Shown here piece after piece: positions 44,454 through 48,970 of a stretch of 64,000 nt of DNA. Each line of letters starts with the position of its first letter. Positions within the stretch are counted from its first letter, which is position 1. The position numbers and the translations under genes are program-made. Under the pieces are notes generated by a model. It worked only from the letters and a program-made list of their open reading frames with translations. It was not told where the DNA came from and searched no databases. Origin of the DNA: Halorussus marinus (GTDB lineage Archaea; Halobacteriota; Halobacteria; Halobacteriales; Haladaptataceae). Location: positions 62,001-126,000 of the forward strand of contig NZ_SBIV01000002.1 of NCBI RefSeq assembly GCF_004765795.1. The letters run 5' to 3'.

Positions 44454-45596
44454 CTACTCGGCCAGTTCCTCGTCGAGGGTCGTCCCGGTGACGTACGACG
44501 AGAGCTGGACGCCGACCAGACTCACCACGACGCCGGCGACGACGAACACCGCGAGTCGGGTGCCCGGCGGGACCTGCATGCTCTCGATCACGAGGTTGCC
44601 GACTTCGATCCGGGGGACGACGATGGGCGCGACCAGCCCCGCGGGCTGGAGGAAGTACGCCGAGAACCCCCGGACGACCAGCCCGACCGCGAGCACGCCG
44701 AACGGGAGGTTGAGGTAGGCGTTTCGGACCCGGTCGTTACGGATGGCCTCGTCGAGCAGTCGGCCGGTCGAGGCCGCCATCGCGGCGCTCGCGAGCCACG
44801 GCACGCTCGCGAACGCGAACGCCATCGCGGGCATCAACACCCCCTCGTTCGAGATCGTCATATCCGAGACCCGGAGCGCGCCGGCGAACACCCCGACCAG
44901 CGACAGCCCCGCGGCGACGACGTAGGTGACGATCGAGACCCGCCCGGAGTAAAGGGCGTCCCGGACCTCCGCGGGGAGGTCTGCCACGTAGTCGTCGACG
45001 CCGAGCCCCTTGTAGAGGACGAAAAGCCCCATCACGGCGGTGATAGTCGAGACCGCGATCGCCTGCCCGAACCCCATCAGCAGGATGGGAAACGCGATCA
45101 GCGCGACCCCGACCGGGACCAGCACGGTCTGGCGGAGCTCCTCGTCGGCGAGAAACTGCTTGAGCAGGTAGTAGGTGGACTCGATGTCCCTGGCCTGCCG
45201 GACGACCACCCGGTCGACCGCGTCGACCTGCACCCGGCTCTCGATGATCGGGACCAGCCGCTCGTCTTGGGCGCTGTCGATGACGACGATCGCCGAGTCG
45301 GGGTCGTACTCCGCGATGAGGTCGTCGGTCTGGGCCGCGACCGCGCGGTCGCGACCCACCATGGTGTCGGCCGCCCCCGAGATGACCGCGACGGTGACCT
45401 CCTCGTCGCCGTCCCTGAGATCGCGGGCGACCCGGAGCGATTCGAGCAAGCAGTTGACGCCGGCGTCCTCGGGGTCCGCGATCCCGACCTCGGTGACCAG
45501 CGACCGGACCGCCTCCCATCCGACGACCGGGGTTTCCAGCCCGGTCTTGGCACCGATGTCGTCGTCGCGGTCGACACAGACCACCAGCGTGCTCAT
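44454..45596 (-). CDS. DUF373 family membrane protein
   Basis: A 380-residue protein with a soluble N-terminal domain (residues ~1-150: TLVVCVDRDDDIGAKTGLETP, GDEEVTVAVISGAADTMVG) and a C-terminal membrane part with about seven to eight helices. This is the archaeal DUF373 pattern. The function is unknown; the N-terminal domain looks nucleotide-binding. A TATA-like element (CTTTTTATCC on the minus strand, ~45622-45631) lies just upstream and survives only ~35 bp from the boundary repeat of the adjacent island. Confidence 0.87.
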   Translation of the reverse strand: MSTLVVCVDRDDDIGAKTGLETPVVGWEAVRSLVTEVGIADPEDAGVNCLLESLRVARDLRDGDEEVTVAVISGAADTMVGRDRAVAAQTDDLIAEYDPDSAIVVIDSAQDERLVPIIESRVQVDAVDRVVVRQARDIESTYYLLKQFLADEELRQTVLVPVGVALIAFPILLMGFGQAIAVSTITAVMGLFVLYKGLGVDDYVADLPAEVRDALYSGRVSIVTYVVAAGLSLVGVFAGALRVSDMTISNEGVLMPAMAFAFASVPWLASAAMAASTGRLLDEAIRNDRVRNAYLNLPFGVLAVGLVVRGFSAYFLQPAGLVAPIVVPRIEVGNLVIESMQVPPGTRLAVFVVAGVVVSLVGVQLSSYVTGTTLDEELAE

Positions 45597-45667
45597 GTCG
45601 TTCGACTGGGCCCAGACGCGCGAGGGATAAAAAGGCTCGCGTCGGGGCGGCCGACTCCGCGATCAGT

Positions 45668-45696
45668 CGGCGTCGGCGGGATCGACGACCTCGCCG
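45668..45696. repeat. left copy of 29 bp direct repeat flanking the restriction-modification island
   Basis: This 29 bp segment is identical to 48151-48179, in the same orientation. Read on the minus strand it encodes GEVVDPADA, the C-terminal end of the nth product, and here is followed by an Asp codon and a stop (TGA at 45663-45665). It therefore represents the displaced original end of nth, left behind on the far side of the island. Confidence 0.9.
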
Positions 45697-45706
45697 AGTC
45701 GACCGA

Positions 45707-46573
45707 TCAGAGAGTCGTCTGATTCCGAACCGCCGAGAGCGCTTCGTCGTCTTTGTATCGTGAGTACGGATTTAGCTCGGGATCGAGATACACGCAGTCG
45801 AACCCCCAGAGCGCGTCGGCCGAGAACGTCGCCGTCTTGCCCGAGTCGCCCTCGGTATCGCTCTTGTTGAACTGGTCGGGGTCCATCTCGCCCATTCGGA
45901 CTTCCCAGATCCACGCGGTGTCTTTCCGCGTTCCTCGCTCGTAGTTTCGGTCTCGATCCGCCAGAACGTACCGAAGCGTGACGTACAGGCCCGGTTTCGG
46001 GAGGTGTCCTTTCGGCATGTTGTTCTCCATCGCGACTTTGATCTCGATCCCCGGAACGCCACTCCGAGCGCCGGTGCTGATCAGATCGGGGAAATTCCCC
46101 GCGTTCACTTCGTAGAGCCCCTCAGACGCCTCGGCGACACCGGAGGCGAAAAACTCCCCGATCACGGTCGAGAGCGCAGAGTACTCGTCGAACTGTTCGG
46201 CGAGCGGTTCGACACCCCGCCGTTCGAACGCGAAGTCGATCGTATCCAGGTTCTCGTACGCTCTCTCGATCCCCATCAGAATCGCCGAGTTGTCGAAGGG
46301 AACGTCGTCGTAGATATCTGCGTCCTCGATCACGTACTCTTCTTTCGGTGTTCTGAACGATTCGGGGTTCACCAGTTCGGTGATGGTGACGTCTAATGCG
46401 TCTGCGATCCGCATCACGATCGAAATACCGGGCTCTCGTTCGCCCCGTTCGATCTTCCCGAGCGTGGTTCGGTGTATGTCAGCGGTCTCGGCGATCTCTT
46501 CGAGGGAGTTCCCGTGTAGCTCGCGGAGTTCCTTGATTCGCCGACCGAGATCCGATCTGAACTCGTCGCTCAT
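45707..46573 (-). CDS. XRE-HTH protein with PD-(D/E)XK-like motif; putative type II restriction enzyme with built-in controller
   Basis: A 288-residue protein. Residues ~7-65 form an XRE helix-turn-helix (LGRRIKELRELHGNSLEEIA, TADIHRTTLGKIERGEREPG) like C-proteins of restriction systems. The remaining ~220 residues match no family I recognise but contain Pro162-Asp163, then Glu177-Ile-Lys179 (GIEIKVAMENN), the spacing of a PD-(D/E)XK nuclease site. The neighbour, divergently transcribed 220 bp away, is a C5-methyltransferase, so a cognate restriction role is likely. The ATG at 46573 lies ~27 nt after a TATA-like ATTATGTTTAAC (minus strand). It ends 10 bp from the left direct repeat. Weaker points: the nuclease motif is short and no target site can be predicted. 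Confidence 0.72.
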   Translation of the reverse strand: MSDEFRSDLGRRIKELRELHGNSLEEIAETADIHRTTLGKIERGEREPGISIVMRIADALDVTITELVNPESFRTPKEEYVIEDADIYDDVPFDNSAILMGIERAYENLDTIDFAFERRGVEPLAEQFDEYSALSTVIGEFFASGVAEASEGLYEVNAGNFPDLISTGARSGVPGIEIKVAMENNMPKGHLPKPGLYVTLRYVLADRDRNYERGTRKDTAWIWEVRMGEMDPDQFNKSDTEGDSGKTATFSADALWGFDCVYLDPELNPYSRYKDDEALSAVRNQTTL

Positions 46574-46598
46574 GCGTTGGGACCAGACACCGTCGCTC

Positions 46599-46626
46599 GT
46601 TAAACATAATTGAGACAATTGTCTCA
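46599..46626 (-). promoter_or_regulatory. promoter and 16 bp palindromic operator of the HTH-nuclease gene
   Basis: TGAGACAATTGTCTCA (46611-46626) is a perfect palindrome immediately upstream of the minus-strand TATA-like element (46599-46610). The position suits autoregulation by the XRE domain of the adjacent protein. Related half-sites, GAGACG at 46749-46754 and CGTCTCA at 46778-46784, occur just before the methyltransferase start, so one protein could control both genes. Confidence 0.6.
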
Positions 46627-46727
46627 TCGTTGGCGATCGATTAACTCTGCGCCGATCTGACAACGGTTCGATCGAATTCGAGGCTCCTACGAAGGGTATT
46701 AAGGCGGTGCGAAGATAGCTACGGATA

Positions 46728-46790
46728 ATGCATCGCCCCAGTCAGACCGAGACGGCCGTAACTGGCGACGAAGCGATCGTCTCACCGTAA
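46728..46790 (+). CDS. possible 20-codon leader ORF upstream of the methyltransferase
   Basis: ATG 46728 opens a 20-residue frame (MHRPSQTETAVTGDEAIVSP) ending in TAA 3 nt before the methyltransferase ATG, in the same reading frame. TATA-like GGTATTAAGG (~46695-46704) lies ~27 nt before this ATG, so a leaderless message would start here. It could be an upstream peptide that lowers or times methyltransferase translation, or chance. Confidence 0.3.
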   Translation: MHRPSQTETAVTGDEAIVSP

Positions 46791-46793
46791 TCT

Positions 46794-48053
46794 ATGGTAG
46801 GTGTCATCGACCTGTTCTGTGGCACGGGCGGCTTCACGTACGGCTTCGAGACCCACCCCTCCGACCAGTTCGAAGTCCTGTTGGGACTCGATAAAAAGGA
46901 CGTCGCCGCCGAGACGTTCGAACGAAACCATCCGGACGCGGAGGTCGTGAACGCGGACATTCGAGAGTGGCCCCCCGAGAAAACGGCCCGACAGACGGAC
47001 GTCACTCCCGACGACGTCGACGTGATCGTGGGCGGTCCGCCCTGTCAAGGCTTCTCTTCGATTCGTCCGGACCGCGGCGACGACGTTCTGGACGAACGGA
47101 ACGGGCTGTACTCCGACTTCATAGAGTACGTCGCCTACTACGAGCCCGACTTCTTCGTGATGGAGAACGTGGTCGGACTGGCCACCCACGAAGACGGCGA
47201 GACGATCGGCCAGATTTTGGACGATACGCGACACATCGGGTACACCGCCGACTGGCGGATCCTGAACGCCGCCAATTTCGGCCTGCCACAGCGCCGAGAG
47301 CGACTGATTATGATCGGTGCGGCCGACGAGCGGGAGATCGAATTCCCGGATCCGACACACGAGGCGGACGGTCGAACGATCGGGTACCGGGACAAGTCGA
47401 AGGTCGTGACGACACAGCCCACGCTGGACAGTTTCCGGGACGCCAAAGCCCTCCGAGAGGCGAGAACGATAGTCGACGCCATCGGCGATCTCCCGGAACT
47501 GGAGGCCGGAGAACGCGCAGTCGAGTACACACAGCCGCCACAAAACCGCTATCAGGCGTCGCTACGCGACGGATCGGCGGAGCTCACGCTACACGAGGCG
47601 ACCGATCACGGGGAGAAGATGCTGACGATAATCAGACACAGCGGCCCGAACAAGCAGACGACCATCGAGAATCTGGAGCGGTCGCCGGAAGTGGACGACG
47701 TCGACGACTACATCACTACGGGGTACAGTTCGAGCTACTCCCGCCTCGACCCGGACCTCCCCTCGGTGACGATGACGGTCAACTTCATCCATCCCGCCTC
47801 CAACAAGTGCATCCATCCGACCCAAGACAGAGCGCTCACGCCGCGGGAGGGTGCTCGGATACAGAGTTTCCCCGACAGCTTCGAGTTCGTCGGAAACCGG
47901 AGCGACGTCGTAGAGCAGATAGGAAACGCCGTCCCGCCACTACTCGGGCGCGTGCTGGCAGAACACGTCGTCGGGATGTACGACGAGTCGTATCGGGCTG
48001 ATTACGCCGCGTGTGTCATCGATGACGGACCCGAGCGCACGGCCGAAATCTAA
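46794..48053 (+). CDS. DNA (cytosine-5) methyltransferase
   Basis: A 419-residue C5-methyltransferase with all main motifs in order: I VIDLFCGTGGF (residues 4-14), IV GGPPCQGFS with catalytic Cys84, VI FFVMENVVGL (Glu124), VIII QRRER (166-170), and near the C-terminus motif IX/X with RIQSFP and IGNAVPP. A ~200-residue variable region between VIII and IX holds the target-recognition domain. It protects host DNA from the partner nuclease. It is divergent from the HTH-nuclease gene and lies inside the direct-repeat-bounded island. A short frame ends 3 nt before its ATG. Confidence 0.95.
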   Translation: MVGVIDLFCGTGGFTYGFETHPSDQFEVLLGLDKKDVAAETFERNHPDAEVVNADIREWPPEKTARQTDVTPDDVDVIVGGPPCQGFSSIRPDRGDDVLDERNGLYSDFIEYVAYYEPDFFVMENVVGLATHEDGETIGQILDDTRHIGYTADWRILNAANFGLPQRRERLIMIGAADEREIEFPDPTHEADGRTIGYRDKSKVVTTQPTLDSFRDAKALREARTIVDAIGDLPELEAGERAVEYTQPPQNRYQASLRDGSAELTLHEATDHGEKMLTIIRHSGPNKQTTIENLERSPEVDDVDDYITTGYSSSYSRLDPDLPSVTMTVNFIHPASNKCIHPTQDRALTPREGARIQSFPDSFEFVGNRSDVVEQIGNAVPPLLGRVLAEHVVGMYDESYRADYAACVIDDGPERTAEI

Positions 48054-48136
48054 GCGACCGCGTTCTCCAGAGGCCCGCCACTCCGCCCGGTAGCAGTGCT
48101 GTGGCCGCCTGAGCCGGAAGCGGATCTCGAACGGCG

Positions 48137-48970
48137 CTACTCGTTTGTGACGGCGTCGGCGGGATCGACGACCTCGCCGGTCGCGGGTTCGACGCCCACC
48201 CGATCGCAGAGGTCGGACAGCGGACACGCCTCGGGACCGTCGAGACACGCCGGTTTGCGGGCGGTACAGTGCTCGCGGCCGAACTGAATCGTCGCGGTGT
48301 GGCCGAAGCCGCACTTCTCGGCGGGCACCTCGCGTTCTAGGACCGCCCGGACGGTCTCGTGATCGGCGTCGGGCGCCGCGACCCCGAGCCGCCGGTAGAT
48401 GCGATGGACGTGGGTGTCGACGGGGAACACGCCCGACTGCCCGCCCGCGAACAGCAACACGCAGTCGGCGGTCTTCGGTCCGACGCCGTTCAGATCGAGG
48501 AGCGCCGACCGGACCTCGCCGGGATCGCCCTCCCGGACGAACTCGTCGAAGGCGGCCGCGCTCCCGTGGTCGTCGAGGACGCGGTCGGCGACGGTCGTGA
48601 TGACGTCGGTCTTCTGGTTGTAGAGGCCCGCCGGTCGGATAGTGTCGGCGAGTTCGTCGGGATCGGCGCCCGCGAGCGCGACCGCGAGGTCGGTGTCGTC
48701 GGACCCGTCCGCGCCCCCGGTGGCGTACCGCTCCATCAGCGCGTCGTGGGCCGGCTGGCTCGCCTTGTCGCTGGTGTTTTGACTCAGGATCGTCCGGACC
48801 AGACACTCGAAGGCCGGCCGACCGCCGTAGGTCTTCGTCCAGTACAACCGGCCGAGTTCGTCGACGACCGCCTCGGCGCGGGTGTCGGGGTCGCCGTCCC
48901 GGAAGCTCGCGAACGAGCTCCCCGCGGGGTCGCCGCCGCTGATGTTCTCGGCGGGTTCGGGATCGTCCAT
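48137..48970 (-). CDS. nth: endonuclease III with altered C-terminus
   Basis: A 277-residue DNA glycosylase/AP lyase for oxidised pyrimidines. The HhH-GPD core is intact: Lys166 in LNGVGPKTADC and Asp185 in FPVDTHVHRI are the catalytic pair. The [4Fe-4S] ligands are Cys235, 242, 249 and 255, spaced C-x6-C-x6-C-x5-C rather than the bacterial C-x6-C-x2-C-x5-C. A 25-residue polar N-terminal extension precedes the fold. The last residues VTNE are supplied by the inserted restriction island, which duplicated the GEVVDPADA codons. Confidence 0.94.
   Translation of the reverse strand: MDDPEPAENISGGDPAGSSFASFRDGDPDTRAEAVVDELGRLYWTKTYGGRPAFECLVRTILSQNTSDKASQPAHDALMERYATGGADGSDDTDLAVALAGADPDELADTIRPAGLYNQKTDVITTVADRVLDDHGSAAAFDEFVREGDPGEVRSALLDLNGVGPKTADCVLLFAGGQSGVFPVDTHVHRIYRRLGVAAPDADHETVRAVLEREVPAEKCGFGHTATIQFGREHCTARKPACLDGPEACPLSDLCDRVGVEPATGEVVDPADAVTNE
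48151..48179. repeat. right copy of the 29 bp direct repeat, within the nth 3' end
   Basis: Identical in all 29 positions to 45668-45696. It encodes residues 265-273 of the nth product on the minus strand. Flanking bases differ immediately on both sides, so the repeat boundary is sharp. Confidence 0.9.

What the first reader, a model, noticed from the sequence alone, without database searches (positions are those of the whole stretch)
45668..48179. Restriction-modification unit inserted into the 3' end of nth between perfect 29 bp direct repeats
Positions 45668-45696 and 48151-48179 are identical over 29 bp in the same orientation. The repeat encodes GEVVDPADA, the end of endonuclease III. 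The left copy continues to Asp and stop, the right copy to VTNE and stop. The 2.45 kb between holds only the HTH/nuclease candidate and the C5-methyltransferase. Insertion with long target duplication has been described for restriction-modification genes in bacteria; here it seems to have happened in an archaeon, choosing the end of a repair gene and rewriting its last codons. No recombinase is encoded.
Basis: partly seen in the sequence, partly recalled or inferred. Interest (0 to 1): 0.85.

Follow-up and report, generated by a model that had tools for sequence, protein, structure and literature searches.

The report
Mobile restriction gene pair behind nth
A two-gene DNA restriction-modification cassette, whose nuclease carries its own built-in gene switch and which is otherwise found almost only in bacteria, has landed at the end of a DNA-repair gene in a salt-loving archaeon, duplicating 29 letters of that gene and giving it a new tail.

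Summary
A perfect 29-bp direct repeat (45668-45696, 48151-48179) brackets 2,454 bp holding only two divergent genes, and it occurs nowhere else in the 3.76-Mb genome even with 3 mismatches. No congener has a close relative of the methyltransferase or a second nth end. The copy next to DUF373 reads GEVVDPADAD-stop, the commonest congener ending, so the insertion reading holds.
The inserted unit is a C5-methyltransferase plus a nuclease with an N-terminal C-protein-like HTH (best PDB matches C.BclI, C.AhdI) and an EcoRV/BglI-like PD-(D/E)XK domain. The divergent pair recurs in Haloarcula amylolytica, many bacteria and a plasmid, with a conserved operator GAGAC-N4-GTCTC between the genes. It travels on a plasmid, as an integron cassette, in a tRNA island and alone; a Rhodoferax MAG carries it between 68-bp repeats of the start of pyrF.
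'Long target duplication' is only partly supported: the new nth tail VTNE-stop resembles VSDD-stop, found in one of 391 other haloarchaeal genomes, a clade-mate. The incoming DNA may have carried an nth end, making this an end exchange rather than a pure duplication. The two mechanisms are nearly tied. No strain-level empty site was available.

The parts
48137..48970 (-). nth (endonuclease III), now ending GEVVDPADA-VTNE-stop
   Evidence: ORF; orthologues in all 18 genus genomes
48151..48179 (-). 29-bp direct repeat, copy attached to nth
48137..48150 (-). replacement nth tail VTNE-stop supplied by the inserted DNA
45697..48150 (.). inserted unit, 2,454 bp, GC about 0.60 against 0.69 in the genome sample
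46794..48053 (+). C5-cytosine DNA methyltransferase, 419 aa
   Evidence: PF00145 1.4e-65; PADLOC MTase_II 1.2e-102
45707..46573 (-). C-R fusion: N-terminal C-protein-like HTH (about 1-75) plus PD-(D/E)XK nuclease domain (about 90-275; P162-D163...E177-x-K179), 288 aa
46612..46625 (.). operator-like palindrome GAGACAATTGTCTC, 38 bp upstream of the nuclease gene start, next to a TATA-like TTTAA
   Evidence: (conserved across 18 loci)
46770..46783 (.). imperfect second operator GAAGCGATCGTCTC just upstream of the MTase start
   Evidence: read by eye; a perfect second copy exists in Haloarcula (L142 9824-9837)
45668..45696 (-). 29-bp direct repeat, DUF373-side copy
45663..45696 (-). relic of the resident nth 3' end, GEVVDPADAD-stop
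44454..45596 (-). DUF373 gene, resident downstream neighbour; its upstream promoter region is conserved in congeners
   Evidence: PF04123

Best explanation
A compact mobile type II R-M cassette (C-R fusion nuclease plus divergent C5-MTase) integrated at the 3' end of nth. Shown: unit boundaries, foreign composition, absence in relatives, the relic of the resident nth end next to DUF373, the divergent pair conserved elsewhere, a conserved operator. Inferred: the HTH domain binds the operator, so that the MTase appears first and the nuclease later. Inferred and least certain: the joining step. I judge slightly most likely an exchange of gene ends: the incoming DNA carried its own nth-like 3' end (29 shared bp plus VTNE-stop) next to the cassette, and recombination across the shared 29 bp left nth with the new tail and the resident PADAD-stop end as a relic. 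That a cassette was inserted here at all I hold at about 0.9; the confidence below is for insertion by end exchange.
For: 29-bp repeat unique in the genome. No close MTase relative in 17 congeners and 10 other family members; among 392 genomes of the order and 84,980 species contigs the only close archaeal relative seen is Haloarcula amylolytica, M 75% and R 76% identical. Relic D-stop matches the commonest congener ending; a GAY-stop hexamer occurs at 0.00036 per position. New tail: V first with stop in codons 2-9 occurs at 0.004 in random in-frame stretches of this genome, and V[ST][DN][DE]-stop in none of 400,000 draws; behind an nth-like VDPA[DEG]x that tail occurs only in this genome and in clade-mate G012 among 392. 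In Haloarcula, two recombinase-free inserts at the infB 3' end leave a relic of the infB end starting at the same base; in one, the gene-attached and relic ends differ in sequence, i.e. look like two alleles.
Against: No genome with nth-VTNE next to this cassette is known, and the 97 bp between the MTase and the nth-attached repeat match no relative's nth flank. The nth tree still groups this genome with clade-mate G006, so no import of nth is visible. The tail resemblance is four residues and was noticed after the fact. In the Rhodoferax case the two copies are 67/68 identical, which target duplication explains as well.
Confidence: 0.45

Rival explanations
1. Insertion with long target duplication in the sense of Nobusato/Furuta/Kobayashi: the cassette inserted into resident nth and duplicated 29 bp of it; VTNE-stop is simply the first bases of the insert.
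For: Perfect 29/29 repeat, no terminal inverted repeat among the longest inverted pairs, no recombinase. A second copy of the same R-M family in a Rhodoferax MAG (L155) sits between 68-bp repeats, 67/68 identical, of the 5' end of pyrF, with the unit's edges at similar distances: within 10-30 bp of the R stop and 79-97 bp past the M stop. R-M units inserting with long, variable target duplications are described in bacteria (PMC3031569, PMC3874152, PMC1643837).
Against: Makes the nth-like tail VTNE-stop a coincidence. 29 bp is short against 'in the order of 100 bp'. Only 2 of the 18 loci tested carry a long flanking duplication close to the pair.
Confidence: 0.36
2. The unit is cargo or remnant of an integrative element that uses the nth 3' end as attB, with a tyrosine recombinase lost or acting in trans.
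For: Gene 3' ends are classic att sites (established knowledge); the Pandoraea copy lies in an island with 45-bp tRNA-end repeats and an integrase-like gene; two Haloarcula infB inserts start their relic at the same base.
Against: No recombinase in the unit; no other nth-end duplication in the congeners and family members whose downstream flanks were scanned, so nth is not a recurrent site there; the Rhodoferax target is a gene start, not an end.
Confidence: 0.13
3. No insertion event: partial duplication of nth plus ordinary gene turnover in a variable intergenic region.
For: The nth-DUF373 interval is very variable in the genus, 596-2,846 bp with unrelated genes.
Against: None of those intervals has an nth-end copy; the insert differs in GC from both flanks, and the composition changes at the repeats.
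Confidence: 0.05

Closest known systems
Insertion with long target duplication of R-M genes (Helicobacter pylori; Nobusato et al. 2000, cited in PMC3031569, PMC3874152, PMC1643837)
   Same: R-M genes between direct repeats of host DNA, no transposase, target gene kept readable
   Different: archaeal host; shorter repeat (29 bp); the gene tail is replaced by a sequence that itself looks like an nth tail; no empty-site allele available
CR.NsoJS138I-type C-REase fusions (Liang and Blumenthal 2013, PMC3850674)
   Same: C-protein-like HTH fused N-terminally to a PD-(D/E)XK REase, divergent MTase in most, C-box-like operator upstream
   Different: REase domain is not detectably of the PvuII family; C5-MTase partner; also occurs in archaea; operator GAGACTATAGTCTC
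C.BclI and C.AhdI controller proteins
   Same: HTH domain: best PDB sequence and fold matches
   Different: stand-alone small proteins, not fused to the nuclease
EcoRV, BglI, NaeI, HincII, PvuII REases
   Same: fold of the C-terminal domain; such enzymes fill nearly all of the top PDB matches
   Different: no detectable sequence similarity; individual E-values only 0.03-0.5

Membership tests
Insertion with long target duplication | R-M genes flanked by direct repeats of tens to hundreds of bp | tested here: met
   29/29 bp
Insertion with long target duplication | no transposase, integrase or terminal inverted repeats | tested here: met
   ORFs; longest inverted repeats
Insertion with long target duplication | related genome with a single copy at an otherwise identical empty site | tested here: inconclusive
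   congeners have one nth end but different intergenic genes
Insertion with long target duplication | both copies derive from the resident target | tested here: inconclusive
   the nth-attached tail resembles a different nth allele
C-R fusion type II R-M systems | C-protein HTH fused to the REase in one ORF | tested here: met
   C.BclI 1.9e-14; C.AhdI fold 2.4e-5
C-R fusion type II R-M systems | C-box-like operator upstream | tested here: met
   GAGACN4GTCTC between R and M: exact in 15 of 18 loci, one mismatch in two, two in one
C-R fusion type II R-M systems | fusion has both cleavage and transcription-control activity | not testable with these tools
   needs protein and reporter assays
PvuII-family REase | sequence similarity to R.PvuII | tested here: not met
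   no such Pfam match in 17 members, no PDB sequence match for the domain
PD-(D/E)XK type II REase | catalytic motif and fold | tested here: met
   P162-D163 and K179 invariant, E177 nearly so, in 17 sequences; PDB neighbours BglI, EcoRV, NaeI, DpnI, each weak alone
Integrase-driven island | recombinase gene in the element | tested here: not met
   only two genes in the unit
Integron cassette | attC site at the unit's end | not tested
   attC-like sites were read by eye at L150; no attC model was run on the window

The most novel reading that the evidence does not exclude
Haloarchaea take up small recombinase-free cargo units by swapping gene 3' ends: the incoming DNA brings a substitute end for a housekeeping gene (nth, infB), and the resident end is left as a relic. 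The C-R/M cassette would be one user of such a route.
Probability: 0.25. Interest if true: 0.8.

Novelty: new variant of a known kind. Interest (0 to 1): 0.6.

Why it matters
It extends R-M insertion with gene-end duplication to an archaeon (no archaeal case was found in the papers held, though RM-linked rearrangements in Pyrococcus are cited) and shows a second, independent case of the same R-M family in a bacterium, so the mechanism can be tested with one cassette in two domains. It also defines a C-R fusion R-M family with a conserved operator used across archaea and bacteria, whose basal transcription machineries differ.

Tried and rejected
MTase alone as probe in genome contigs and viral contigs found nothing; the three-row R alignment then found 20 loci but none in viral contigs. 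No phage record covers most of R. Chance repeat: rejected. Import of whole nth from a distant lineage: not supported, since the nth and DUF373 trees both place this genome with members of the same clade (G006, or G006/G010/G012), with weak resolution elsewhere; a local 91% match to G016 in one 40-codon window was not pursued. Rhodoferax empty site: 92 of 103 genus genomes match, mostly at pyrF only, and the upstream region is not conserved, so no clean empty allele. No relevant homologue of the 97-bp M-side edge (only a 23-bp chance-level match). The Haloarcula copy has no repeat close to the pair; its 18-bp (17/18) repeat lies at the edges of a larger 4.84-kb island. Furuta et al. 2010 is not held, and Nobusato et al. 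2000 was read only through citing papers.

Full report
Observation. The 29-bp repeat is real, exact and unique. Positions 45668-45696 and 48151-48179 are identical in direct orientation. It is the longest direct repeat of the window (next 20 bp; longest in 40 simulated 64-kb sequences 23 bp) and has no third occurrence in the 3.76-Mb genome with up to 3 mismatches. In 1.18 Mb of the same genome, other spaced repeats of at least 23 bp look like paralogues, palindromic or low-complexity repeats or a tRNA cluster (judged from the list, not gene by gene). The 2,454 bp between the copies have a GC of 0.60 against 0.69 for the genome sample.

Is it an insertion? In all 17 other genomes of the genus the nth orthologue was found, and in 16 of them it lies upstream of DUF373 on the same contig and strand with 596-2,846 bp between (in G001 the two are on different contigs). 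Those intervals hold unrelated genes (PHP-domain, small HTH, acetyltransferase; names from the translations) and no second nth end; downstream flanks of 10 further family members show none either. No genus or family member has this MTase beyond distant C5-MTase similarity. Removing the unit and one repeat gives nth ending GEVVDPADAD-stop, then 66 bp to DUF373 including its conserved promoter region. PADAD-stop is the ending of 8 of the 17 congeners and of 5 of 9 genomes of genus g3. So the insertion reading is well supported, though a strain-level empty site is missing.

What was inserted. The MTase is a C5-cytosine enzyme. The partner is a fusion: its first about 75 residues are an XRE-type HTH whose best solved relatives are the R-M controller proteins C.BclI and C.AhdI, by profile (1.9e-14 and 1.2e-8) and by predicted fold. 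Its C-terminal domain has no Pfam or PDB sequence match, but P162-D163 and K179 are invariant and E177 nearly invariant in 17 relatives, and the predicted domain (pLDDT 87) returns BglI, EcoRV, NaeI, DpnI, HincII and PvuII as its PDB neighbours (E 0.03-0.5 each, so the support is the consistency of the list). The C-R fusion idea is known from CR.NsoJS138I in the PvuII family (PMC3850674); this nuclease is not detectably of that family.

Distribution. A profile of three R proteins found 20 loci in 84,980 species genomes: Haloarcula amylolytica is the only archaeon, the rest are bacteria of several phyla; the window's own genome may be left out of that search by design. Wherever the MTase is seen it is divergent from R; one locus is cut by a contig end, and a few are partial. 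A Psychrobacter plasmid carries the same pair. The two archaeal MTases form one branch (92/91), the other members of the family tested are bacterial (the program warns of long branches, so the direction of transfer is not inferred). The space between the two genes contains GAGAC-N4-GTCTC: exact in 15 of 18 loci, one mismatch in two, two mismatches in one. In the archaeal promoters it lies a few bases upstream of a TATA-like element, so autoregulation is a reasonable inference, not shown.

Vehicles. The family is carried on a plasmid (L143), as an integron cassette between attC-like sites (L150), in a tRNA-bounded island with an integrase-like gene (L153, Pandoraea), and in a 4.84-kb island at the infB 3' end of Haloarcula with an 18-bp (17/18) repeat, the empty site being contiguous in six relatives. 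Most informative is L155, a Rhodoferax MAG contig: the pair alone, flanked by 68-bp repeats (67/68) of the pyrF start, the intact pyrF following the right copy. Only the window and L155 show long repeats close to the pair among the 18 loci tested.

Mechanism. Two readings are close. Target duplication explains both compact cases with one process already described for R-M genes in bacteria. Against it stands the new nth tail. Random in-frame continuations in this genome start with V and stop within codons 2-9 at 0.004, and V[ST][DN][DE]-stop was not seen in 400,000 draws; yet the tail VTNE-stop has a counterpart, VSDD-stop, in G012, the only other genome of 392 with that nth end and a member of the same DUF373 clade (support 91/91). 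If the tail is a real nth end, the incoming DNA carried it, and the event was an exchange of ends at a shared 29 bp. The Haloarcula infB inserts look alike: in G200 the gene-attached and relic ends look like different infB alleles and no integrase is encoded. The resemblance is short and was noticed after the fact, so I keep end exchange (0.45) only slightly above target duplication (0.36).

Novelty. New variant of a known kind: a C-R fusion R-M family with an EcoRV/BglI-like nuclease domain, crossing domains, and an archaeal case of R-M insertion at a gene end. I found no archaeal precedent in the papers searched, but the library is open-access only, and RM-linked polymorphisms in Pyrococcus are cited (PMC1643837), whose details I could not read.

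Noticed in passing
L142 6185-11060; L207-L218: The 3' end of infB in Haloarcula is an insertion hotspot: G180 (4.84 kb with the R-M pair), G200 (2.26 kb, a lipoprotein-like gene), G103 (about 3 kb, lipoprotein-like plus PIN-like) and several variants of about 265 bp, without a recognisable integrase. In G180 and G200 the relic of the infB end begins at the same base.
   Followed up: partly
window 45597-48136: The nth-DUF373 interval is highly variable across the genus (596-2,846 bp, different genes), apart from the R-M insertion.
   Followed up: partly
window 46729-46791: A 20-codon ORF (MHRPSQTETAVTGDEAIVSP) ends just before the MTase start and overlaps the imperfect second operator; in several bacterial loci the operator also reads ETIVS in an upstream frame.
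   Followed up: no
window 23408: Second exact match to GAGACNNNNGTCTC in the window, away from the R-M unit.
   Followed up: no
L150: The same R-M pair sits as a cassette between attC-like sites in a Paraglaciecola contig.
   Followed up: partly
L153 6178-6222 and 16123-16167: Pandoraea island bounded by 45-bp tRNA-end repeats carries the R-M pair and an integrase-like gene.
   Followed up: no
G000 C2 250914-252136 (outside the window): Repeats up to 123 bp containing a tRNA end around about 1 kb of lower-GC DNA.
   Followed up: no
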